From Chthoniobacterales bacterium (GTDB taxonomy: Bacteria; Verrucomicrobiota; Verrucomicrobiia; Chthoniobacterales; JAATET01): a stretch of 35,091 bases of DNA. The stretch covers positions 1-35,091 of the forward strand of contig DATCRI010000003.1 in assembly GCA_036569045.1 (NCBI GenBank), written 5' to 3'. Shown here piece after piece: positions 1,213-35,091 of the stretch (its first letter is position 1; each line of letters opens with the position of its first letter). The notes beneath the pieces are model-generated. The model saw nothing but the letters and a program-made list of their open reading frames with translations. It had not been told where the DNA came from and did not search any database. Both the position numbers and the translations under genes were made by a program.

Positions 1213-2625
<1,413 letters not shown>

Positions 2626-2969
2626 GGCTCCCGGTCTACCATGACCTCTCCAAAAATTCCAATCGCCAACCCGCGGCTTCCTATCCCAATTGCGAATGAG
2701 TGGCACGGAAGCTGCGACGAGGTCTCATCAGCAGCGCAGTCGGTTCGGAAACTCGAACCAGCCGCGCTGCAAAGATGTTTCTACGTTTGCCTTACCATGT
2801 CCGACTCGTCCTTCTCCGCCACGGTCCGTCCCCTCGGCCGGCCGTTCGCCCATGCTGGCGAGATCGAAGGGCTTCCCGCCCCTTTCATCCCATCAACCCC
2901 TTGGAAATGACGACTTTGTCACATTTCCCATTTTGCGGGCGCGCCCTCCCTGCGGCGAGGGGTGAAGGG
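2626..2969. other. divergent intergenic region between fumC and pseudopilin cassette 1
   Basis: About 344 bases that should carry the promoters of fumC (-) and of the D-B-C-A cassette (+). No clear sigma70 pair could be assigned. An imperfect dyad (AAATG...CATTT, inner TGAC...GTCA) lies at 2905-2926, and GAGGGGTGAAGGG directly precedes the chosen cassette start. The open frame through this region gives low-complexity Arg/Pro-rich protein and is not called. Confidence 0.4.
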
Positions 2970-3632
2970 ATGCACCGGCTGCCCACCCCTCGTCCCCACC
3001 GGCAAGGATTCTCTCTGGTGGAGCTCCTTGCGGTGATGGCCATTCTCGTCATCATGCTGGCCCTGCTCGCCCCGGCGATCAGCACGATTACCGGCAGCAC
3101 AAGCCGCAACGGCGCGGTGAACATTCTCATGAACACGATGGAGCAGGCCCGCGTCGCCGCCCTCGAAAGCGGCCGCACGGTCTACCTCGTCTTCAATCGC
3201 CAGACCTTCCCCGATCCGGACCGCATCATGGTCCTCCGCGAACCCGATCCGGAATCCGGCAAGACGGATTACGAACAGCTCACCAGCTGGATCAAACTGC
3301 CAAAAGGCATCCTCCTCCACTCCGCCGGCAAGACCGACATCCTTTCGGAAAGTCTCCCCACCGGCACCAGCGGAACGAACCTCGTTTTCGACCCCGCAAA
3401 GTCAAAAGCTTTCTCGGCCGCGAAGGGAGACCTGAACATTCTCGCCTTCAATGCCTACGGCGGCGTCGTCTATCCCAACTCCACGAAGCTCATGCTCATC
3501 GTCTGTGAAGGCGTCCGGGACAGCAACGGAGCCGAAGCTCTGATCAGCCCGAACAAGAACGCCGGCGGCTTCGAGATCATCACTCTCCGTCGCTACACCG
3601 GAAGAGCCTCCCTCGAGGTAACCACTCTGTAA
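2970..3632 (+). CDS. Verru_Chthon cassette protein D, GspH/FimT-like pseudopilin
   Basis: A predicted minor pseudopilin that would insert in the inner membrane and join a pilus-like fibre after leader cleavage. In the 220-residue product a short basic leader with several prolines ends in RQG, followed by FSLVELLAVMAILVIMLALL, with Glu at +5 after the Gly cleavage site. The next part (ARVAALESGRTVYLVF) resembles the GspH/FimT pattern. The ATG at 2970 was chosen because a purine-rich ribosome site (GAGGGGTGAAGGG) sits directly before it. An earlier in-frame ATG at 2907 has none. It is the first gene of a tightly packed cluster, 5 bases before the next gene. The family name is recalled from the TIGRFAM cassette families. 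The GspH analogy is inference. Confidence 0.82.
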   Translation: MHRLPTPRPHRQGFSLVELLAVMAILVIMLALLAPAISTITGSTSRNGAVNILMNTMEQARVAALESGRTVYLVFNRQTFPDPDRIMVLREPDPESGKTDYEQLTSWIKLPKGILLHSAGKTDILSESLPTGTSGTNLVFDPAKSKAFSAAKGDLNILAFNAYGGVVYPNSTKLMLIVCEGVRDSNGAEALISPNKNAGGFEIITLRRYTGRASLEVTTL

Positions 3633-3637
3633 TATCC

Positions 3638-4108
3638 GTGAAGCGTTCCGTTTTAAGCACCCGAGCCGGCTTTTCCCTCATCGAAATCATCCTCGCACTG
3701 GGCATCATCTCCTTCACGCTGGTCGGCATCCTGGGACTTTTCCCCGTCGCGGTGAATGCCGCCGCGGACAGCCAGCATGAAACCCAGGCGGCCCTGATTG
3801 CTCGCTCCATGTTCCATGAGCTGGAATCCCATCCCGGAACCCCAAATCGCACAATTACGGTGGGAGGAGACCTCATTGATGGTCGCCCCGTCAAAGTTGA
3901 TCTCTCGAAAGCCGTCACCCTTACCGACATGGCGGGATTCGATAGCGGAGGAACTTCACTCTCAGATGCAAGCGACACCATGGCCGTTTACACCGTCGAT
4001 CTAAAGACGGAACCGGTCACTCCGGCTAATGGCCTCACCCGTGTCGACGTGACGGTCAAAACCAAGAGAACTTCGTTTCCCTTCTCCACCTTGCTGCGGC
4101 AGGACTGA
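3638..4108 (+). CDS. Verru_Chthon cassette protein B, GspI/PilV-like pseudopilin
   Basis: A predicted minor pseudopilin of 156 residues. After a short basic leader the cleavage context is RAG, followed by FSLIEIILALGIISFTLVGI, with Glu at +5, a pattern very like PilV and GspI. The following ADSQHETQAALIARSMFHELE also fits the amphipathic helix of that group. The start is GTG at 3638, 5 bases after the D stop, which suggests translational coupling. No good ribosome site lies immediately upstream. The C-terminal part (VDVTVKT near residue 140) is a beta-rich pseudopilin head. The truncated B of cassette 2 ends in a similar way (VHVTISS). The GspI role is inferred from leader, length and gene order. 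Confidence 0.82.
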   Translation: MKRSVLSTRAGFSLIEIILALGIISFTLVGILGLFPVAVNAAADSQHETQAALIARSMFHELESHPGTPNRTITVGGDLIDGRPVKVDLSKAVTLTDMAGFDSGGTSLSDASDTMAVYTVDLKTEPVTPANGLTRVDVTVKTKRTSFPFSTLLRQD

Positions 4109-4123
4109 CCCCTCTGCATTTTC

Positions 4124-4999
4124 ATGACTTGTCTGGGCCGAACTCGAAAAATCCGCTGGAGCGACGGTGCGTTCACTCTGCTCGAGCTGCTCGTTTCCAT
4201 GACCATCCTCAGCTTGCTGATGGTCCTCCTGCTCTCGATGGTAAACGGAGCGACCAAGCTCTGGAAAGCCAACGAAAACCGGGTCGACAGCTATCGAGAA
4301 GCGAGAGCCGCGATCAACGTCATCGCCTCGGATCTCTCCAGCCTCTACCCCTCCGCGAATCTCAGTTATTTTGCGACCCAAGCCGATTCAACCCCTAAGA
4401 CGCCCGTGTCGATCGAGGGGTTGGATGGACGCCTTTTCTTCGTGACCGCCCTTTCCGCCGACGCTCAGGAATCCGGAAAGAACAAAAGCGACCTTTGCAC
4501 CGTGGGCTACTTTCTCGCCTTCGACAAAACATCGCTCACCGGGCGTGGGGTTTCATCTTACAACCTCTATCGGTATTTTCGGAGCAGCGACGCCACCTTC
4601 CCTGCCATCGAGAAAGGCGATTTGCTGTCCGACATCACCATCGAGACCTCTCCCACCAGTTCCACCTCCGAAGTCCTCGCCAAAAACATCACCGGTTTCG
4701 AAGTGGTCTCTTACGAGATCCCTCCCGCCACCACTGCAAATCCCAATCCAACCCCGAAGCCATTCGTGAAAACGGCCAACCTGCCAATGCCCGACATGGT
4801 TGAGATCACGGTGCAAGCGATCAGCAACGAAGCCGCCAAACGTTTCAGCGACAGCAAATCCGCATGGGAGGACAAGAATTCCATCACCCGTAAACAGGAT
4901 GAACGCGTTTTCAAAACTCGGATTTACCTGCCTGGTGCTGCCCAGGCGAAAGCCGCCGCGAACGCCTCTCCAACACCCACGCCCACGCCCGAACCATGA
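4124..4999 (+). CDS. Verru_Chthon cassette protein C, GspJ/PilW-like pseudopilin
   Basis: A predicted minor pseudopilin of 291 residues. The leader is SDGA, followed by FTLLELLVSMTILSLLMVLL with Glu at +5. The cleavage residue appears to be Ala instead of Gly, as it also does in the C protein of cassette 2. The segment YREARAAINVIASDLSSLYP matches the GspJ/PilW pattern of an Arg-rich helix before the globular head. The C-terminus is a low-complexity Pro-Thr tail (PTPTPTPEP) absent from the cassette 2 copy. Its stop overlaps the start of protein A in ATGA at 4996-4999, indicating coupled translation of C and A. Confidence 0.82.
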   Translation: MTCLGRTRKIRWSDGAFTLLELLVSMTILSLLMVLLLSMVNGATKLWKANENRVDSYREARAAINVIASDLSSLYPSANLSYFATQADSTPKTPVSIEGLDGRLFFVTALSADAQESGKNKSDLCTVGYFLAFDKTSLTGRGVSSYNLYRYFRSSDATFPAIEKGDLLSDITIETSPTSSTSEVLAKNITGFEVVSYEIPPATTANPNPTPKPFVKTANLPMPDMVEITVQAISNEAAKRFSDSKSAWEDKNSITRKQDERVFKTRIYLPGAAQAKAAANASPTPTPTPEP

Positions 5000-7900
5000 T
5001 TCGTCGCCCTTTCCGAACTACGGGCTCCGCGCTCGTCTCCACGATGCTCGTCATCGCGGTCCTCACCATTATCGTGGTCGCATTCCTCCAGAGCATGACC
5101 GTCGAGCAAAAGACCGCCCGGAGTTATCTAAACCGCTATCGCGCCGAGCTTGCCGCGGAGGCAGCCGCTGCCTCGGCGGAGAACAAACTGCGAATCCTGT
5201 TTACGAATTATCCGGATTCCTGCACTGCCTGGGCAAAGCTTCCAAGCACCCAAGGAACGGTCTTTTACTACCGAACCCTGAGCGGGAGCGATCAAGGCGC
5301 TCTTCCTAAAGACACAGCGATAGACATCAAGGCCCTCATGCTGATCTCGGGAGCGACCGAGGTAAAAGCCGGAAGGACCGATACCGAGTTTACCGAAGCG
5401 AACGTTTTTCCCGCTCTAGACGCCGCTGATTCCCCGGGATTCACATCAGAAAACTCCATCGATCTGAATCGTGACAAGTGGATCGGCGGTCCAAGAGATC
5501 ACGAAAATCAATCCATTCTCGCAAAATGGGTCAACCTTCCGGAAGACTCGTCAAAGCCGCTGGATAACTCGATCGATCCGGCAACCGGTCGCGCAAAAAA
5601 TGGCATCGTCGCACGATACGCCTATTGGATGGAGGACGAGAGTTTCCGGGTGAATATCAATAAAAGTGGGGACAAGCCCCGGGGGACTTCGACGGAGGGA
5701 ACGAATCCCTCAGACATTGACCTGCAGGCCGTAATGGAAGCGACCGGGATCGATGACTTCGCCACGGCTCTGGTCGCTAGGCGAGATGCCATGCCGGACA
5801 AACGCTTCCTAACGGCGAGTGAGGCAAGCTACGGCAAAACGTCCGGCCCCTCGAGCGACACCTACGAAAAGCTGAAGTTTTACCTCACGGCTGACTCCAG
5901 TGCCCTGAACTTCTCAAGAGGAGGAGTGAAGCGCCTCGACTTGAATAAAGTCGTTACAAACTCCCCCTCCCCTTCCGACATTCGGGACGAAATGGATCGC
6001 ATCATCGCGGCAATCGGAAACCCCTATGCGGTGCCTGCCGACCCGAACCGTTTGTCTCTTTCTGACTTCGGCCAGCGCTTTTACTACCCGATAAACTCGG
6101 CAAACAACGGGTATCCCGTGCCCGCAGGAAACAGCGACATTTATCTGCAGAAGCTGGCCGCGAATATTCGTGACTACATCGACAAGGATTCGCAACCAAC
6201 CATCGTTCAGAATGAGGAGGGCTTTCCAATTCGTCCTCAGAGCAAGGCAACCGCCAGCGACATGATTGGATTCGATCCGGGCGGAAACTCGACCGGCCCG
6301 AGCGATACCGCCGCCGTTGGCAAGGAATCCGTTCCCGCCCTCGACGAATACGCCTATCGGGCGAAACTCAACAGCATGACGCCTCCCAAGAAATCGGCAG
6401 GCATCACGAGCGCTCAATATGACGTGGAGGAGAGCCACTACTTCGAGTTCATCAACCCTACGAACCAGGACATCTCAATCGAGTCCTTGAAAGGCTCCCT
6501 CGACAATGCTTCGCCGTTCCTCCTGATTAGCAACCAGCTGGGCTACGGAAGCGCGGGAGGGGACGACATCCCCGCCGGACGCACGATCGAAATTCCTCTC
6601 GATCAGTTTGTCGACGGCAACGGGAATCCTTTGACCAAGTTTCCTGCGGGAAAGGCGGTTGTATTGACCACCGATCCCAATCCCGAGGAAACCAACCTGC
6701 CCTACTCCAGCAATGGGGCCAACACATTCTTCCGTCCCAATAGTTCCGCCCAGGAAGCCATCAAAGACAAGCGGCATTTCAAGGGCACCACCCGTGATGC
6801 AACCAGCGGTAGCCCCACGATGTTCCGAGTGCTCGCGAAATTTGGCACCGGCGCCGGCCGCGCGGGCAGCGGCGGCTCGGACTATGACACGCATGTCCTG
6901 ATCGGAAACAGTGACGGCGTCATTGAAAGTTTCACGGCACTTTCCCTTCCCTACGCCAACCAGCTTTCCATCAAATACGACGACAACGCCACGTCACCTC
7001 CAGTTCCAGGAACAAAATGGTTCCAAGGGGGATCGCTGAAGGGCAACGTCGGAGGGGATGTCAAGGTAGCCTCGGGCGATCCTCGGAGTCTCAATGAACA
7101 ACTGTCGATCAGGAGATACGTCTCCGGAGTTACAAACAATATCACCCGTTTCTTGTCGAGTGGCGTGGAAGCCGGCGGCAGGGGGACGTCAACGTTCGGA
7201 GCTCTCGCCAACAGCTTCATCAACACCCGACTGTGGCCAGATTTTGCAGCTCAGACTGCCAACGAAATCGACGTTGGATACGCGCGAATTGCAAATTCCG
7301 AGCTCGATGGGATCGGGCGCTTGGGAGACATTTACGACCCCAACAGGTCCCCAAGCGAACCAGAGTATGCGCGCGGCGGAGGAAAAACTTTGCGAATTGG
7401 GCAATCGGATCGTTACGTCAATCAAGGGAATGTCAGCGGCGTTCCCTATCCTGGAATTTTCGGTATCTGGGATGGCAACGAAAATTCCGTTTCCCGGAAT
7501 CGAGTAGCGTGGCGTCTTACGGATTTCTTTTCAATCGACGACGCACTGACAACTCCAGGCGTGATCAACATCAACGGAGTTTCTCGGGATGGCGGCGTAT
7601 CCTTGAAGGCAGCTATCTACCGGCTTGTATTCTCGACCGATGATCCCGCATTAACGGGAAAATCCCTGAACATGGACGCCTTGATTACAGCTATCGCACA
7701 GCGGTTTCCATCCGGTATCGATGGTGGAGACAACGAAGGCGCACCCACGGCCGACGACCCGTTTTGGGAACGCGGCGAAATCTCCGAAGTCCCTTACAAC
7801 AGCAAAACCGGTTCGCCCACCCCCGTTCCGCCGCTCTTCAATACCGGCAACAAGCTGGCCAGCGTCCCAATGGAAACCACTCAGGATCGGTCGCGCGAGG

Positions 7901-8187
7901 AACTCGTGCGACGCTGCCTCGATCTGTTTACGACGAAGGGCAACGTGTTTCGCGTCTATTGTGTGGGCCAGGCTATCCGTCCAAATCGAGACGGCACTCT
8001 TCGCGTTCTTGCCCAGCAAAAACTCAAGTTAACCTTTGCGATCGAACCGGAATTCGACAACCCACTGCCCAGCGACACCTCCTTCGACGGAGTCGCCGAA
8101 CTGGACGGGAATGGCAACTCGCCCACAAAGCGCTTTCGTCAGCCAGATCGCTTCAAAATTCGAATTCTCTCCGTCAACACCTATTGA
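4996..8187 (+). CDS. Verru_Chthon cassette protein A, giant GspK/PilX-like pseudopilin
   Basis: A predicted exported tip-type pseudopilin of 1063 residues, about three times the usual GspK length. Residues 1-10 are basic and end in TTG, then a hydrophobic helix (SALVSTMLVIAVLTIIVVAF, residues 11-30) follows. There is no Glu at +5, which is the known hallmark of GspK. Residues 207-222 (RYAYWMEDE...VNIN) resemble the DE.G..N.N region of GspK. Residues 271-300 look like its helical insert, followed by RLDLNKVV (313-320). The rest is Ser/Thr/Asn/Pro-rich and beta-predicted, with no recognised enzyme motif. NINGV near residue 858 recurs in the family as I recall it. The family call is good. The tip function is inference. 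Confidence 0.82.
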   Translation: MIRRPFRTTGSALVSTMLVIAVLTIIVVAFLQSMTVEQKTARSYLNRYRAELAAEAAAASAENKLRILFTNYPDSCTAWAKLPSTQGTVFYYRTLSGSDQGALPKDTAIDIKALMLISGATEVKAGRTDTEFTEANVFPALDAADSPGFTSENSIDLNRDKWIGGPRDHENQSILAKWVNLPEDSSKPLDNSIDPATGRAKNGIVARYAYWMEDESFRVNINKSGDKPRGTSTEGTNPSDIDLQAVMEATGIDDFATALVARRDAMPDKRFLTASEASYGKTSGPSSDTYEKLKFYLTADSSALNFSRGGVKRLDLNKVVTNSPSPSDIRDEMDRIIAAIGNPYAVPADPNRLSLSDFGQRFYYPINSANNGYPVPAGNSDIYLQKLAANIRDYIDKDSQPTIVQNEEGFPIRPQSKATASDMIGFDPGGNSTGPSDTAAVGKESVPALDEYAYRAKLNSMTPPKKSAGITSAQYDVEESHYFEFINPTNQDISIESLKGSLDNASPFLLISNQLGYGSAGGDDIPAGRTIEIPLDQFVDGNGNPLTKFPAGKAVVLTTDPNPEETNLPYSSNGANTFFRPNSSAQEAIKDKRHFKGTTRDATSGSPTMFRVLAKFGTGAGRAGSGGSDYDTHVLIGNSDGVIESFTALSLPYANQLSIKYDDNATSPPVPGTKWFQGGSLKGNVGGDVKVASGDPRSLNEQLSIRRYVSGVTNNITRFLSSGVEAGGRGTSTFGALANSFINTRLWPDFAAQTANEIDVGYARIANSELDGIGRLGDIYDPNRSPSEPEYARGGGKTLRIGQSDRYVNQGNVSGVPYPGIFGIWDGNENSVSRNRVAWRLTDFFSIDDALTTPGVININGVSRDGGVSLKAAIYRLVFSTDDPALTGKSLNMDALITAIAQRFPSGIDGGDNEGAPTADDPFWERGEISEVPYNSKTGSPTPVPPLFNTGNKLASVPMETTQDRSREELVRRCLDLFTTKGNVFRVYCVGQAIRPNRDGTLRVLAQQKLKLTFAIEPEFDNPLPSDTSFDGVAELDGNGNSPTKRFRQPDRFKIRILSVNTY

Positions 8188-8188
8188 A

Positions 8189-8980
8189 ATGATCCGCTCG
8201 TTCCTACTTTTCGCCGTTTTTCTTTTGGTCGTCTCCGCAACCTTCGCCCAAGAGGAAACGCCTGCACCGACGGCGGAATCAGATCCCGCAGTCTCGGAGG
8301 AGACCAGTTCGACAGGCAGCGCCCACCTCAGAGTCTGGGTGATGGTGCCCCCGGAAGTGATGCCCGCCATTCCGGGGGATCAACCTTCACTCAGGGACAA
8401 ACTTTCGCTCGTCTATGACGGCCCCGATGGCAAACCCGCCTTTCTTTTGAGCGCTGCCGTGCCGTTCGACACGACCGGCTACATGGAGGTGCCCGGACAT
8501 CCGACGGAAATCCGTCTCGTCCGCCAGATCGATGGAGATTTGGCAGAAGTCGCTCGATCCAAGGCAAAGTTGAAAACGGGCGCTTATCTGACCGCTGTTA
8601 TTCAGAAAGAAAACGGGAGATACACCCTTTCGTTCATCGACGACACCCTTCCCCCTCCCCCCCAACCAGCTCCGGGGGAAGCCCCTCCCCCCCCTCAAAA
8701 GCGAATCGTTTTTTACGATTTTATCAGCGGTGATTCCACGACCATCAGCTGTAAGGATCCGGTCTTCAGCAAAACGCTCACCTTTGGCACACCTCAGATC
8801 CTTGCGGACCTCCCAGAAAAAATTTTTTCCATTTCCATGCCGATCAAATCAGCGAAGCGCACTTATATGGGCACCATCGAGATCGATCTTCAAACCAACG
8901 ACAGCCTGAGCTTCCTCATCGTAAAAGATTTCTTTGGCCGGACGACCGCCAAGGTTTTTCCGAACTCCAAGCTGGACTAA
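8189..8980 (+). CDS. secreted protein of unknown function, last gene of cassette 1
   Basis: A 263-residue product with a clear signal peptide (MIRSFLLFAVFLLVVSATFAQ, cleavage probably after AFA). A mature part follows that is rich in Pro and Glu near its start. A proline cluster (LPPPPQPAPGEAPPPPQKR, about residues 154-172) is encoded by C-tracts of 7 and 8 bases. The ATG at 8189 starts one base after the stop of protein A, so it is almost certainly co-transcribed. The C-terminal half (about residues 173-263) has alternating hydrophobic residues and could be a beta domain. I recognise no family. Position suggests a periplasmic or surface partner of the cassette pseudopilins. Confidence 0.75.
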   Translation: MIRSFLLFAVFLLVVSATFAQEETPAPTAESDPAVSEETSSTGSAHLRVWVMVPPEVMPAIPGDQPSLRDKLSLVYDGPDGKPAFLLSAAVPFDTTGYMEVPGHPTEIRLVRQIDGDLAEVARSKAKLKTGAYLTAVIQKENGRYTLSFIDDTLPPPPQPAPGEAPPPPQKRIVFYDFISGDSTTISCKDPVFSKTLTFGTPQILADLPEKIFSISMPIKSAKRTYMGTIEIDLQTNDSLSFLIVKDFFGRTTAKVFPNSKLD

Positions 8981-29767: not shown

Positions 29768-32700
29768 TCAGCGAACTTCCTCCACCTGCTTGTCGAGGAC
29801 TTTTCCGGTGAACCGGTCGATAGCCAGATGAACCCAGTAACGCTTCTCTCCATCGACCGCGAATTTGGCAAGATCCGTCCCCCCAGCCGGAATCTTCCCG
29901 CTCTGCGCGATGACATCGATCATCAGATTCCAAACCCGAGTCTGGCCAGTATTGGAAAGAGCGCGGACAGCCGCTTCGGTGTATCGCTGAATTGGCCAGG
30001 TCGTAGGCTTGGGAGATATGGTTTCAATGTCTCTTCCGAAGCCTTGGTATGCGTTATAATTAGTCGCGCCTCCAATATAGTAGCCCACGAGGTCCGCAAC
30101 GTTGGTGAACGGTCCTTGGCCCGCTGATGTGCTGTTGGTGCGTCTTACAAGACTATTAGCGACAGCCTCCGCAGTAGTATCTGCAACCACGTTATTGGCG
30201 CCTCCGAAGCTGGCGTTGGCGGAAAGCTCGTTTTGGTAGGCACCTTCGATAATGGCTTTTACCACGGGAACCTGGCTGGTGTTCAAATCGAATTTGCCAG
30301 CCACCATTCCACTCGGATCAGACATTTCGTTCACGCAGAAAACATCTAATAAGGCTGAATCTCCGCTTTCAGGAAATACGAAGTTGAGATTTTTCCAAGG
30401 CGTTCCTGAAAAAACGGCTCCCAGCTCCGCAACCGAGCGGAAAGGTCGATTCAAAATGATCGGTCGGCTCTCGGAAGGTGTCGCGCCTGAGGGCTTTGCC
30501 AAGGGGAGGCCTGTAGTGCCCGACGAATATCCCCCCGACGCGCGCCGAATAATCTTATCAGCATCGGCGTAGCGAGCCGGAGAATTCGATTTATTTTCTG
30601 AGAAATACCCGATTTGAGTGACACCATTGGTAGGCGGCGGCGACGCCGTCCATCCATCCGCAGTCTTAAAGATAACTGGTCTTGGTCCATCAGATACATT
30701 CCATTCATGATACTGCCGGCCTTGAATGACTGTTCCAGCAGTGGAATCCCAACGATAAGTCGGCAAAACTGTCCCGGCAGGAGTCCCCCACCCCCCATAT
30801 CCCGGCGCTATTCCTGTGTTCGAATGCCCCTGATCATACGTCAAGACATCCATGAAGTTCCACCGGCTGGACCGTGGATCAACCGTCATAAAATAGACTG
30901 AGGCGACAACCTCAGGTGAGCCGGGAGTATATACACTATCACCTAAAGCTACACCGTCTCGACCTGACAACCAGGTTGGCCAGCCCAAAGGGATGTCTTG
31001 GTTGTTGACCACCCGTTTGACATCGTAGCGCACTTCCCGAGAATTATCGGAGGCTTTAAGAGTAAAGACCCAAGCCGGGTAGGCATGATCACCATTACCA
31101 TTATTCCCGGTTGAAAAATTCGTATTATACTGCATTCTATTCGCAGCTTGGAGGCCAGCATTCTTGTCCACCCATTTAGCGGGACCCGCACCCAGATAAA
31201 AACCAATGAAATCTCTGCCTTTAAATAGGCTAGATTGGGCACTGGCATGAATGCCGTTTGAAGTAACAGCACCGGGCACGCTCGGAAGATGCACCCCATA
31301 AGCCTTAACGGGGTCATCCAAGTTGGACTTGTCCGGTAACCCCTTTCGATTCAATAACGTAGGCTCACGAAAGAGTGCGTAACCATCACTGTTCTCCGGG
31401 ACCGTGAAGGACAATTTATTCTTTACCTCTCCCATAGTAAAAGTCTCTTTTTTGTCTATGTCAAATCCCCAAGCTGTTTTCCAACCTGAAAGGCTAGTCA
31501 TTTTTCCATTCATACTATAAACGCCGTTAGAGAGGGTTTCAGCTCCCCCCGGCCTCGATAGGGGATTATTCGAGGCAACTGTAGCATTTGCATCTCGCAC
31601 GGTAAGCGTAAAATCCTGAGGACGAGGATCTCCCAAAGCATTACTACTTGCCGGATCGTAACCATGCGGGTTCCAAATCTCCGGCCACAGCATGCAAGCT
31701 ATTAGGCCCGTTTCTTTGACAGTGTTGTTAGGACCATCTACAGGATTCACCAATCGGATCGCCGACCAGGAAACCCGATAAATGTAAGGCAGGTTTTCGA
31801 CTCCGGTTACAACATAGGGATCTGCTGCCACCGGGACACCAGCGTTCACGCCGGTGTTCTTGTCATTTTGAACTGGATATCGATACGAAAGAGCATATTG
31901 ATCCGTTTGACCATTATCTTTGGGTAAGTCGGACGCAGGCGATCCATTGGAAGTGAAAAACTTGGCGCTAGGAGGAACTTCGATTTGGGTCGGCCAGCCA
32001 TCGGCGTCGGCCTGATCGATAATATTTGCGCCCAGTTGCAGGATTGCCAAATCCACGGAAGCATCGATCTTACTTTGTTCAAAATAAAAGGGCTTGTTGT
32101 CATAAGTGAAGTATTGATTTTTGTCTGCAGCTTTATACATGTTCGCACTCGAAAAACTGCCTAGAGTGGGATTCGATGCCGGCTTCGCCAAAGAGCCCAC
32201 ATTGATCGACGCCTTGAGGAGTTCGAAGAAATTTGGCTCTCTTCCGGTGATCTCGCTCAGCACACGGATACGCCCCGTCCCACTAAGTAGAGAAGCCTTA
32301 TAGGTCCACCGCTTGGTCGCACTATCCCAAGTTAGACCAAAGGCATTTTCGATATTTGTCGAAGTTCCTTGATCAAGATATCCTTGGGTAACTCCCAACT
32401 CCGTCAGACGTTCGATGTCCTTGCCGCCTGTTCTATCCTTGCTGGGACCATCGTAAGTCAGCCATGCCAATCGTGATAAAGGAAAACGCTTTTTGAGGAA
32501 AGGCTCTCCCGATGTCGCCGTGGAACCATCGAGGCGGGTGAAGCCCCCTGCCGTTCTTGCTTTCACAAAAGACGAATTGATACTCCTGAAATTGGCGACC
32601 TGATCATTGCCGCCACTGCCTAAGGCGTAAGGAGCCGGCGGCGCGGGAGGCATCCCCCCGCCGGTCAAACTCCCCGGGAAGCTAAAGGTCGGCTGCTCCA

Positions 32701-33841
32701 GGGCGCGTGAGAAGGTCGTCAGATATTGAAGGCTCGCGAGAAGCTGCGTCGTCGGAACGCTCCCCTGCTGCCCCAGGGTTTTCATGAAATCGATGAGTTG
32801 CTGCCGGGAGACGAAGGCGCGATCGCTGACGCCGCCGGGGGCGGTGATATTGGCGGTCTGAAGAAACCCTCGCGGATCGGATCCCACGGCTTTAAAATAA
32901 GGGGACGCCTTGGTCGCCGTGCCACCGTCGCTCGTGAAGCTATAACTTCCCAGGCTGCCGCTGGCCTGGGCGGAAACATAATTTCGCCATCCCACGATGG
33001 AATTTGCCGTAGGGGCGTCGAAGAATGGCGCGCCGCCGGTGTTTCTGAGCTTAGTGAGATCCACGAAGCCCATGTTTGTCCGATAGGCGCCCATGGCATC
33101 CGGAGCGCCGCCGGTGACGGGGAAACCCGCCGCATTGATATCCAGAAGTCCGCCTTCGTTGTAGATCGCGTAGGCATAGCGGCCAATAATCTTCCCATCG
33201 GCTGCCTGGGGGTTCGGATTGTCGCCGTCCGTGGAGACATAGATCCAGTGCGGCACGGGAAAGGGCGCCTGCGGCGTGGCGTCGGTGTCGCTTTTCCCTT
33301 CCAAAAAGAGCGGCTGGTTCCATTTGGCCAGCGTAATAGGCCGGCTTTGCGGTTGCGAAGAATCGTCGGTCGCGAGGCTGGAGGCCCTCTGCGGAAGACC
33401 CGCTCCCGGATAAAACGGAGCGGCATCCGTGCTGATTTTGACCAGATTCTCCAATCCATTTGGAGTCGTGGGGTCCCCCGGACGGGTGACCCCCTGCAGA
33501 CCCGGCACCATTTTGGTGGCGGGAGCAGACGCACCTGCCCGGGCCGGCAGGTAAAATTTCGAGCCATCAGTTGGCGGTGTCGAAAGTTGACCGGTGACGT
33601 CTGCGGAATTCGTGGGATCGGCGATCTCCGCCTTGAGATCCGCGATCGTCGTATCGATCGCTCCTTGCGCGATCAGGGAAGCCTGGGTTTGGGAACCACT
33701 GCTCTTCGAAACCTGTCTCTGGAGGATCGCGTTCGAAAAGAAGGCCAGGCAAACCCCTACCAGAAGAACGACAAACGCCAGAACCAGGACCAGGGCAAAG
33801 CCGCCGCGGCGGGGAGAACGGGGGGACTGCGGATTTCTCAT
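29768..33841 (-). CDS. Verru_Chthon cassette protein A of cassette 2, giant GspK/PilX-like pseudopilin
   Basis: A 1357-residue paralogue of the A protein of cassette 1. The basic leader RSPRRGG is followed by FALVLVLAFVVLLVGVCLAF, again without Glu at +5. LAKW (171-174) and RYAYAIYNEGGLLDIN (221-236) align with LAKW and RYAYWMEDE..VNIN of the other copy. Near the C-terminus, AGKFDLNTSQVPVVKAI resembles the N-T-A motif of GspK-like proteins. The N-terminal third is high-GC, but from about 30030 to 32620 the gene is clearly AT-richer. Start: ATG 33841, or GTG 33850 only one base after the C stop. Role as tip subunit is inferred. Confidence 0.8.
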   Translation of the reverse strand: MRNPQSPRSPRRGGFALVLVLAFVVLLVGVCLAFFSNAILQRQVSKSSGSQTQASLIAQGAIDTTIADLKAEIADPTNSADVTGQLSTPPTDGSKFYLPARAGASAPATKMVPGLQGVTRPGDPTTPNGLENLVKISTDAAPFYPGAGLPQRASSLATDDSSQPQSRPITLAKWNQPLFLEGKSDTDATPQAPFPVPHWIYVSTDGDNPNPQAADGKIIGRYAYAIYNEGGLLDINAAGFPVTGGAPDAMGAYRTNMGFVDLTKLRNTGGAPFFDAPTANSIVGWRNYVSAQASGSLGSYSFTSDGGTATKASPYFKAVGSDPRGFLQTANITAPGGVSDRAFVSRQQLIDFMKTLGQQGSVPTTQLLASLQYLTTFSRALEQPTFSFPGSLTGGGMPPAPPAPYALGSGGNDQVANFRSINSSFVKARTAGGFTRLDGSTATSGEPFLKKRFPLSRLAWLTYDGPSKDRTGGKDIERLTELGVTQGYLDQGTSTNIENAFGLTWDSATKRWTYKASLLSGTGRIRVLSEITGREPNFFELLKASINVGSLAKPASNPTLGSFSSANMYKAADKNQYFTYDNKPFYFEQSKIDASVDLAILQLGANIIDQADADGWPTQIEVPPSAKFFTSNGSPASDLPKDNGQTDQYALSYRYPVQNDKNTGVNAGVPVAADPYVVTGVENLPYIYRVSWSAIRLVNPVDGPNNTVKETGLIACMLWPEIWNPHGYDPASSNALGDPRPQDFTLTVRDANATVASNNPLSRPGGAETLSNGVYSMNGKMTSLSGWKTAWGFDIDKKETFTMGEVKNKLSFTVPENSDGYALFREPTLLNRKGLPDKSNLDDPVKAYGVHLPSVPGAVTSNGIHASAQSSLFKGRDFIGFYLGAGPAKWVDKNAGLQAANRMQYNTNFSTGNNGNGDHAYPAWVFTLKASDNSREVRYDVKRVVNNQDIPLGWPTWLSGRDGVALGDSVYTPGSPEVVASVYFMTVDPRSSRWNFMDVLTYDQGHSNTGIAPGYGGWGTPAGTVLPTYRWDSTAGTVIQGRQYHEWNVSDGPRPVIFKTADGWTASPPPTNGVTQIGYFSENKSNSPARYADADKIIRRASGGYSSGTTGLPLAKPSGATPSESRPIILNRPFRSVAELGAVFSGTPWKNLNFVFPESGDSALLDVFCVNEMSDPSGMVAGKFDLNTSQVPVVKAIIEGAYQNELSANASFGGANNVVADTTAEAVANSLVRRTNSTSAGQGPFTNVADLVGYYIGGATNYNAYQGFGRDIETISPKPTTWPIQRYTEAAVRALSNTGQTRVWNLMIDVIAQSGKIPAGGTDLAKFAVDGEKRYWVHLAIDRFTGKVLDKQVEEVR

Positions 33842-33851
33842 AAATAACACG

Positions 33852-34802
33852 TCAATTTACGGCAGAATTCAGAAAGAACATGCGCTGATACACGCGAATC
33901 TGCGCAGCGGCGGACTTAGGAATACCTCCCGACTCAACTAGCTCGCGAATCTTACCCTCCCATTCCTCCGCAAGTGTCTTGTCACTTGAGTCAGCTGCAT
34001 CGGGGAACTTTCCACCCAGCTCACCCACCTGGGCTTCACTGAGCAAGGCCCGGCTCTTTGCATCCATGACCACGATGGTCACAATGATTGCCTGAACGTC
34101 ATTCAGGCCCAGTCCCTTGTGGTTATCGAAATCTCCTCCGCTGAAATTGCCAGCGTTAGTCTTATTGTAAGGCGCGGAATACACGGCATCTTTCCCTACC
34201 CCGGCGAGCAAAAAACTGAATTCCAGCCGGAGAACGTTTGGCCCGAGCACATGAAACGGAGAGCCCGCGGCGCGGGGTCCCGGGGTCAGATAGCTGTCGA
34301 AGCTGGAACTTTTCAAGGTGCTTCCAGGGATGGCATCCGGCGGAGTGGTGGGCACTCTGGGCGGGGTGAGTGCAGGAAACGTCAGAAAGACGATGCCGTC
34401 GGGGGCGGGCTCATTCCAACTGAGCCCTTGTCCCAGGCGCTCCAGCTTGAAATCCTCGCCAATCCGATATCCCACGAGGGCCACCGGATCGGTCAAAGCG
34501 GGATTCGCCGGCGAAAGGGCCGGCGCCATGGAAAAGAAAAACGCAGAGTCATTGCCGGCATTTTTCTTGAAGAGAAAGTCCACGTCCTTGCGATTGACCA
34601 TGCCGGCGAAATCTGCAGCCATGCGATCGAAGATCATCCGGGCTTCGGCATCCGCGCTCAGACGCTGACGGCTCGAGCCCGTCGTGCGGGTGGCGCCATT
34701 CATGATCTGAGCGACAAGAACGACCAGCATGATCAGGACGGCCATTGCGGCCATCATTTCGAGAAGGGTGAAAGCCCGGAGAGAGTGACGACGAGGAATC
34801 AT
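33852..34802 (-). CDS. Verru_Chthon cassette protein C of cassette 2, GspJ/PilW-like pseudopilin
   Basis: A 316-residue pseudopilin. The leader MIPRRHSLRA is followed by FTLLEMMAAMAVLIMLVVLV with Glu at +5 and Ala at the cleavage position, as in the C protein of cassette 1. Then comes QRLSADAEARMIFDRMAADF, the Arg/Asp-rich helix typical of GspJ/PilW, and a beta-rich head. It overlaps the upstream B gene in an ATGA, and protein A starts 1 or 10 bases after its stop. The order B-C-A is the same as in cassette 1. Confidence 0.82.
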   Translation of the reverse strand: MIPRRHSLRAFTLLEMMAAMAVLIMLVVLVAQIMNGATRTTGSSRQRLSADAEARMIFDRMAADFAGMVNRKDVDFLFKKNAGNDSAFFFSMAPALSPANPALTDPVALVGYRIGEDFKLERLGQGLSWNEPAPDGIVFLTFPALTPPRVPTTPPDAIPGSTLKSSSFDSYLTPGPRAAGSPFHVLGPNVLRLEFSFLLAGVGKDAVYSAPYNKTNAGNFSGGDFDNHKGLGLNDVQAIIVTIVVMDAKSRALLSEAQVGELGGKFPDAADSSDKTLAEEWEGKIRELVESGGIPKSAAAQIRVYQRMFFLNSAVN

Positions 34803-35091
34803 GGGGTGCGATCGATGGCAGTCACATACTCGAAGGAATTCCTCGGATTCGGCGCGCTGGCGGGCGACGAAATCGTAACATGCACGTGCGTAAGAGTGGC
34901 ACCTCCCGCTGTGCCGGGAGTAATGTCGACCTTGACGGCGTAATCGGCATCCGCCGCTGCCGATTGCTTCGAACCGTCCTCCTTGAGGTAAAGCGTCGCC
35001 TCTCCGCCCGTCGCGGGATTCAGGTCGTAGAGCGGAGATGTTCCGCCGGCGGTTGGCGACACCGCCCGCAAATCGGCCATGATGCCCGAGG
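34799..35091 (-). CDS. Verru_Chthon cassette protein B of cassette 2, 3' part only
   Basis: The C-terminal 96 or so residues of a protein that runs off the window edge in open frame. The end, YAVKVDITPG then LTHVHVTISS and NSFEYVTAIDRTP, resembles the C-terminal beta strands of the B protein of cassette 1 (VDLKTEP, then VDVTVKT and FSTLLRQD). The ATG at 35080 is internal and is not the real start. The pilin leader would lie upstream of the window. Assignment rests mainly on position before C with a 4-base overlap. Confidence 0.65.
   Translation of the reverse strand, partial: SGIMADLRAVSPTAGGTSPLYDLNPATGGEATLYLKEDGSKQSAAADADYAVKVDITPGTAGGATLTHVHVTISSPASAPNPRNSFEYVTAIDRTP

What the first reader, a model, noticed from the sequence alone, without database searches (positions are those of the whole stretch)
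2970..8187. Cassette D-B-C-A looks like a complete minor-pseudopilin tip set with an oversized GspK
Seen: three proteins with prepilin leaders and Glu+5 (D, B, C), then a 1063-residue protein whose N-terminal helix lacks Glu+5 and which carries a RYAYW.EDE...VNIN region. Known: the GspH-I-J-K tip of type II secretion has three Glu+5 subunits plus K, which lacks Glu+5 and carries a large inserted domain. Inference: D=GspH, B=GspI, C=GspJ, A=GspK, making an elongated tip with most of A exposed. These cassettes are named in family databases, but I know of no experimentally assigned function.
Basis: partly seen in the sequence, partly recalled or inferred. Interest (0 to 1): 0.78.

Follow-up and report, generated by a model that had tools for sequence, protein, structure and literature searches.

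The report
Pilus-tip gene cassette with giant GspK
Five neighbouring genes in a Verrucomicrobiota genome encode what looks like a spare tip for a bacterial type 4 filament, capped by a GspK-like protein three to four times the usual size; some relatives carry about twenty such tip sets beside a single recognisable type II secretion GspK.

Summary
D (2970-3632), B (3638-4108), C (4124-4999) and A (4996-8187) match the named but functionally unassigned Verru_Chthon cassette families, below NCBI's cut-offs. In profile-profile tests each matches a different type II secretion minor pseudopilin best: D-GspH E=2e-19, B-GspI 8e-14, C-GspJ 6e-10, A-GspK 3e-6 (A through its helix only). Gene order D-B-C-A equals H-I-J-K. 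Glu+5 is invariant in aligned D, B and C homologues and absent from all aligned A homologues, as in GspK. The predicted fold of A (pTM 0.84) has four GspK structures on top (Z 15.0-15.6; next hit 7.1), spread over the whole protein, so about 800 of 1063 residues are additions, including a probable Ig-like insert. Corrections: the genome has its own T2SS with its own GspH-I-J-K, so this is an extra tip set; a fifth gene, E (8189-8980, secreted), belongs to the cassette; a second, divergent cassette lies at 29768-35091. One near-complete relative holds 23 cassettes and one detected GspK. Which filament machine uses them, and for what, is inference.

The parts
2970..3632 (+). D: H-type minor pilin (GspH/FimU-like), 220 aa, leader ...HRQG/FSLVE
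   Evidence: TIGR02596 26.9 bits; Pfam GspH in 20 of 34 homologues, best 2.3e-8; profile match to GspH 2.1e-19, 6e-8 with leader and helix removed
3638..4108 (+). B: I-type minor pilin (GspI/PilV-like), 156 aa, GTG start
   Evidence: TIGR02598 34.9 bits, PilV 5e-6, gspI 7e-6; profile match to GspI 7.9e-14
4124..4999 (+). C: J-type minor pilin (GspJ/PilW-like), 291 aa
   Evidence: TIGR02599 66.4 bits; profile match to GspJ 6.2e-10 over 180 columns, 0.005 with helix removed
4996..8187 (+). A: oversized GspK-like cap, 1063 aa, no Glu+5
   Evidence: TIGR02600 68.5 bits, GspK model 2e-6 on residues 9-67; model pTM 0.84; four GspK chains at Z 15.0-15.6, next 7.1
5014..5208 (+). A residues 7-71: long N-terminal pilin helix, GspK/PilX type
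   Evidence: Secondary structure; hhalign to GspK 3.1e-6; PilX_N 6e-4
5614..5661 (+). A residues 207-222: RYAYWMEDESFRVNIN, most conserved stretch of the family
   Evidence: Mean pairwise identity 54% for residues 200-221 in 46 homologues; R207, A209, D214, E215 invariant
6328..6948 (+). A residues 445-651: probable Ig-like insert, nearest lamin tail domain (tentative)
   Evidence: Z about 7 in the full model, 5.6 when folded alone; LTD 0.042 in two homologues
7306..8187 (+). A residues 771-1063: C-terminal part of the K-like core
   Evidence: GspK alignments run to residue 1063; 27.5% mean identity against 17.5% in the insert
8189..8980 (+). E: fifth cassette gene, secreted 263-aa protein of a DUF4397-like family
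   Evidence: Homologues directly after A in about 15 other loci, often overlapping its stop; PF14344 in 11 of 15 members, best 2.6e-8
29768..33841 (-). A': GspK-like cap of a second, divergent cassette, 1357 aa
   Evidence: TIGR02600 6e-5 and GspK 1e-4; close relatives among the A proteins of a related genome
33852..34802 (-). C': J-type pilin of the second cassette, 316 aa
   Evidence: TIGR02599 3e-7, gspJ 1e-4
34799..35089 (-). B' C-terminal part, cut by the contig end; D' and the B' start probably lie on contig C69
   Evidence: Frame and position; D- and B-like ORFs at the end of L045; no end overlap proves the join

Best explanation
D-B-C-A-E encodes an additional HIJK-type tip complex of a type 4 filament (the T2SS pseudopilus / type IV pilus superfamily). 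D, B and C are the H, I and J minor pilins. A is a GspK whose pilin body has been enlarged to 1063 residues, partly by a probable Ig-like module set into the K fold. After cleavage by the prepilin peptidase, A would cap a B-C-A complex joined to the shaft through D; lacking Glu+5, A is expected to sit at the very end. An assembly machine encoded elsewhere then pushes the tip outward, so that the added parts of A, perhaps with secreted E bound to them, are presented outside the cell for binding to surfaces or substrates. Shown here: gene set and order, Glu+5 pattern, profile homology of D, B and C, predicted K fold of A, presence of peptidase and ATPases, conserved E. Inferred: assembly of the complex, which machine drives it, exposure, binding role, role of E.
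For: One-to-one profile matches D-H, B-I, C-J, A-K in the operon order of the T2SS; Glu+5 invariant in D, B, C and absent in A as in GspK; GspK structures at Z 15.0-15.6 against 7.1 for the next hit; cassette order conserved in 54 of 80 loci; GspG/PilA-like pilin directly upstream of D in six loci; prepilin peptidase, assembly ATPases and secretins in the genome; the HIJK complex is tip-located and capped by a subunit without Glu5 in known systems (PMC10191384).
Against: Outside the helix, sequence comparison of A with GspK is not significant and Foldseek alone missed GspK. No D-B-C-A interface was tested. No machinery gene is linked to the cassette in the window, and its presence is not significantly associated with a detected GspK.
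Confidence: 0.77

Rival explanations
1. The cassette is a substrate-specific tip for the T2SS piston: it replaces GspH-I-J-K at the end of the pseudopilus, and the insert of A recruits and expels particular exoproteins (perhaps E) without forming a surface pilus.
For: The closest profiles tested are T2SS pseudopilins; the genome has a T2SS; E is secreted and sits next to A.
Against: The genome's T2SS already has its own H-I-J-K. 17 of 47 cassette-positive relatives have no detected GspK, although that screen misses divergent GspK. T4P-type minor pilin models match as well (PilV, PilX_N).
Confidence: 0.3
2. The cassette is a set of tip proteins for a retractable type IV pilus (FimU-PilV-PilW-PilX type), with E in the position of PilY1, used for adhesion, twitching or DNA uptake.
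For: A helix matches PilX_N and B matches PilV; PilB- and PilT-type ATPases are present; E directly follows the K-type gene as PilY1 genes accompany minor pilins in M. xanthus.
Against: E is DUF4397-like, not a PilY1 beta-propeller, though absence of PilY1 could not be shown. No link to pilus genes was seen.
Confidence: 0.4
3. The four proteins stay in the inner membrane as an envelope complex or scaffold and are never built into a filament.
For: No shaft pilin or machine in the window; one relative encodes an A homologue with a Sec-type signal peptide in place of the prepilin helix and without D, B, C, so A-type bodies may work without a filament.
Against: Strict Glu+5 conservation in D, B and C is expected under selection for filament assembly; shaft-type pilins adjoin the cassette in six loci.
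Confidence: 0.08

Closest known systems
GspH-I-J-K (XcpU-V-W-X) minor pseudopilin tip of type II secretion; structures 3CI0, 5VTM
   Same: Four subunits in the same gene order, three with Glu+5 and one without, K fold of A, profile match of each subunit to its counterpart
   Different: A is 1063 aa instead of about 300; cassette not in the T2SS operon; the genome has its own H-I-J-K; fifth gene E; up to about 23 copies in one genome
FimU-PilV-PilW-PilX-PilY1 clusters of Myxococcus xanthus (three per genome, one machine; PMC7541494)
   Same: Several alternative tip cassettes in one genome; four minor pilins accompanied by a secreted non-pilin gene
   Different: E is small and DUF4397-like rather than PilY1; the large exposed part is built into the K-type pilin; copy number far higher in some relatives
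Modular pilins such as PilB of Streptococcus sanguinis (PMC8179133)
   Same: Extra modules added to a tip pilin
   Different: There the module is linked to a small pilin by a short loop; in A the additions lie inside a GspK fold that ends at residue 1063; identity of the insert is tentative
Verru_Chthon cassette proteins A-D (TIGR02600, TIGR02598, TIGR02599, TIGR02596)
   Same: Best NCBIfam match of each gene, clustered genes
   Different: All four score below the curated cut-offs; the models carry no functional assignment; gene E is not among the four letters

Membership tests
HIJK-type minor pilin tip complex (T2SS / T4P superfamily) | Class III leader with Glu+5 in H, I and J | tested here: met
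   34/34 D, 39/39 B, 36/36 C
HIJK-type minor pilin tip complex (T2SS / T4P superfamily) | K subunit without Glu+5 | tested here: met
   No Glu in any aligned A homologue; 0/26 in GspK
HIJK-type minor pilin tip complex (T2SS / T4P superfamily) | Each subunit homologous to its counterpart, genes in H-I-J-K order | tested here: met
   Diagonal best in every row, E 2e-19 to 3e-6; C and A weak once the helix is removed; order
HIJK-type minor pilin tip complex (T2SS / T4P superfamily) | K has the GspK fold | tested here: met
   Predicted model, Z 15.0-15.6 to four GspK chains, 224-259 residues aligned
HIJK-type minor pilin tip complex (T2SS / T4P superfamily) | Prepilin peptidase and assembly ATPase available | tested here: met
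HIJK-type minor pilin tip complex (T2SS / T4P superfamily) | The four subunits bind each other at a filament tip | not testable with these tools
   No complex prediction or experiment available
GspH/I/J/K of the type II secretion system itself | NCBIfam equivalog cut-offs and place in the T2SS operon | tested here: not met
   23.5/80, 26.5/44.35, 16.3/64.85, 27.6/130 bits; T2SS with its own H-I-J-K on C40/C51
Verru_Chthon cassette families TIGR02596/02598/02599/02600 | Curated score cut-off | tested here: not met
   All four are best NCBIfam hits but below cut-off
Modular pilins | Non-pilin domain added to a pilin module | tested here: inconclusive
   About 800 residues beyond the K core; Ig-like insert only at Z 5.6-7
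PilY1 (non-pilin tip cap) | PilY1 beta-propeller in E or elsewhere in the genome | tested here: inconclusive
   No match in nine genomes, but no control rang either; E is DUF4397-like

The most novel reading that the evidence does not exclude
Verrucomicrobiota run a tip-swapping system: one or few type 4 filament machines are primed by many alternative HIJK cassettes, each ending in its own giant, fast-diverging GspK (1092-1474 aa open frames, median 19% identity among the 23 paralogues of one genome), with E as a secreted non-pilin cap in this subfamily. Cells would choose among up to about 23 tips.
Probability: 0.4. Interest if true: 0.82.

Novelty: new variant of a known kind. Interest (0 to 1): 0.63.

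Why it matters
It gives a structural identity to protein families that NCBI names only by cassette letter and that no paper in the searched library mentions, and turns them into a testable system: is a giant GspK a tip module, and how does one cell serve up to 23 tip sets? The best-documented case of alternative tip sets found here is three, in Myxococcus xanthus.

Tried and rejected
Sequence-only proof that the body of A is GspK: hhalign with the helix removed gave only short, non-significant matches, also with a second set of divergent A proteins; a profile search of PDB sequences found no pilin. Foldseek alone did not report GspK; only the VIA-align second look did. The Ig-like insert stayed weak when folded alone (pLDDT 62.7). 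Co-occurrence of cassette and detected GspK was not significant. Absence of PilY1 could not be shown. A hormogonium-polysaccharide (Hps) type system was considered because C weakly matches HpsC (4.7e-4); the paper search brought no usable description, no HpsA match to A appeared, and it was not pursued. My first Glu+5 count used a pattern favouring Glu and was replaced by an alignment count.

Full report
WHAT IS THERE. The window is one whole contig (C3) of a 3.43 Mb, 91-contig genome. Cassette 1 is D 2970-3632, B 3638-4108, C 4124-4999, A 4996-8187 and E 8189-8980, all on the plus strand with gaps of 5, 15, -4 and 1 nt. NCBIfam ranks the Verru_Chthon cassette families D, B, C and A first for the four genes, all below cut-off.

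CONSERVATION. A homologues occur in 57 of 117 related genomes, the closest at 55% identity. In 80 named loci, nearly all titled Verrucomicrobia or relatives, 54 read D-B-C-A exactly and 8 more have additional D-like pilins upstream. Six loci have a GspG/PilA-like pilin (1 to 3 copies) before D, so that the order is G-H-I-J-K.

ASSIGNMENT TO H, I, J, K. The genome has a T2SS: by my reading of the called genes, G-H-I-J-K and the start of L on contig C40, and the rest of L, M, one further gene, D, E and F on C51 (secretin, ATPase); GspK there matches the GspK model over positions 2-298 of 307. Profiles of D, B, C and A were compared with profiles of these GspG, H, I, J and K and their relatives. 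Full length: D-H 2.1e-19, B-I 7.9e-14, C-J 6.2e-10, A-K 3.1e-6, each the best in its row. With leader and the first 30 helix residues removed: D-H 6e-8, B-I 8e-4, C-J 0.005, A-K 0.11, still best in each row but weak for C and not significant for A. Pfam GspH matches 20 of 34 D proteins, best 2.3e-8.

GLU+5. Read from alignments, Glu+5 is invariant in D, B and C and absent in all aligned A proteins and all 26 GspK proteins. The review PMC10191384 describes the HIJK complex as tip-located and capped by a subunit lacking Glu5, and says the T4aP and T2SS sets are interchangeable for piliation.

FOLD OF A. AlphaFold2 with 46 sequences gave mean pLDDT 77.5 and pTM 0.84. The VIA-align look at Foldseek's candidates gave in ranks 1-4 6utu_C (Z 15.6, 227 of 261 residues), 5vtm_X (15.5, 224 of 259), 3ci0_K (15.2, 242 of 280) and 9a1f_T (15.0, 259 of 295), all GspK/XcpX, with model ranges running from residue 11-47 to 1063; rank 5 is a lamin Ig domain at 7.1. 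Three of the four alignments start at residues 39-47, so most of the long helix does not contribute. Foldseek's own ranking did not report GspK. About 800 residues of A are therefore additional to the K core. One addition (445-651) looks Ig-like, nearest the lamin tail domain, but only at Z 5.6-7, which the tool warns may be a common arrangement. The insert is less conserved than the C-terminal core (17.5% against 27.5%), and the RYAYW.EDE...VNIN stretch is the most conserved (54%).

FIFTH GENE. E has a Sec-type signal peptide (my reading of the sequence) and homologues immediately after A in about 15 other loci of this subfamily, frequently overlapping the stop of A. DUF4397 matches 11 of 15 members. 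A cap or effector role, like that of PilY1 in type IV pili, is inference.

HOW MANY. The own genome has two detected B genes: that of cassette 1, and one on contig C69 that follows a D-like gene and probably continues into B'-C'-A' at the end of the window; no end overlap proves the join. Among 77 relatives most have 0-3 B genes, but three genomes of one genus have 20, 23 and 26, and each of these has one detected GspK. In G041 (3 contigs) all 23 B places were fetched: all 23 have an A-type frame of 1092-1474 aa, and 21 have all four genes, in the orders D-B-C-A, B-C-D-A or B-C-A-D; the A proteins share a median 19% identity. That genome has 8 matches to the T2SSE ATPase family.

MECHANISM PROPOSED. 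Shown: gene set, order, Glu+5 rule, profile homology, predicted K fold, peptidase and ATPases in the genome, conserved E. Inferred: that the four form a tip complex, that A caps it, that an assembly machine encoded elsewhere pushes it out, and that the added parts are displayed and bind something. The machine cannot be named: B matches PilV and gspI equally, the A helix matches PilX_N and GspK, and cassette presence is not significantly tied to detected GspK (p=0.16).

RELATION TO KNOWN SYSTEMS. It works like a GspHIJK or FimU-PilV-PilW-PilX tip. It is not the T2SS's own set, and it falls below the cut-offs of both the T2SS equivalogs and the Verru_Chthon models, so it is filed as a divergent relative of both. 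M. xanthus has three minor-pilin/PilY1 clusters for one major pilin and one machine, two of which suffice alone (PMC7541494); modular pilins with added adhesive domains are known (PMC8179133). New here are the size of K, the additions inside its fold, the fifth gene and the copy number in some relatives. No paper in the searched library mentions these model names.

Noticed in passing
window 29768-35091 (-) and L045 1-962: A second, divergent cassette (A', C', B' cut by the contig end) whose D' and B' start probably lie on contig C69; its A' is closest to one subfamily of the A proteins of G041 (10 of 23).
   Followed up: partly
L238-L260 (genome G041): 23 cassettes in one near-complete genome, in three gene orders (D-B-C-A, B-C-D-A, B-C-A-D), with A proteins at a median 19% identity.
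   Followed up: partly
L100 7616-10888 (same gene in L107): An A homologue of about 1090 aa with a Sec-type signal peptide and an extra N-terminal stretch in place of the prepilin helix, with no D, B or C genes detected beside it.
   Followed up: no
L097 6060-15749: D-B-C-A followed by an E-like secreted protein and a second A of 930 aa, then another small secreted protein.
   Followed up: no
L039 5496-17526: A separate filament operon in the same genome: ATPase of 725 aa, four pilin-like genes, and further on an I-like gene and a 447-aa GspK-like gene.
   Followed up: no
window 1213-2970: A fumarase-like gene is divergent from the cassette, and the same neighbourhood is kept in three same-genus genomes (L082, L096, L097).
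   Followed up: no
window 2970-8187 and 29768-33850: Both cassettes are poorer in G+C (57% and 54%) than the window as a whole (62%).
   Followed up: no
L155, L170, L174: A-type proteins of 1640-1655 aa without detected D, B or C beside them.
   Followed up: no
L103: A C-A-E set on a contig labelled Acidobacteriaceae; possibly a misassigned verrucomicrobial contig.
   Followed up: no
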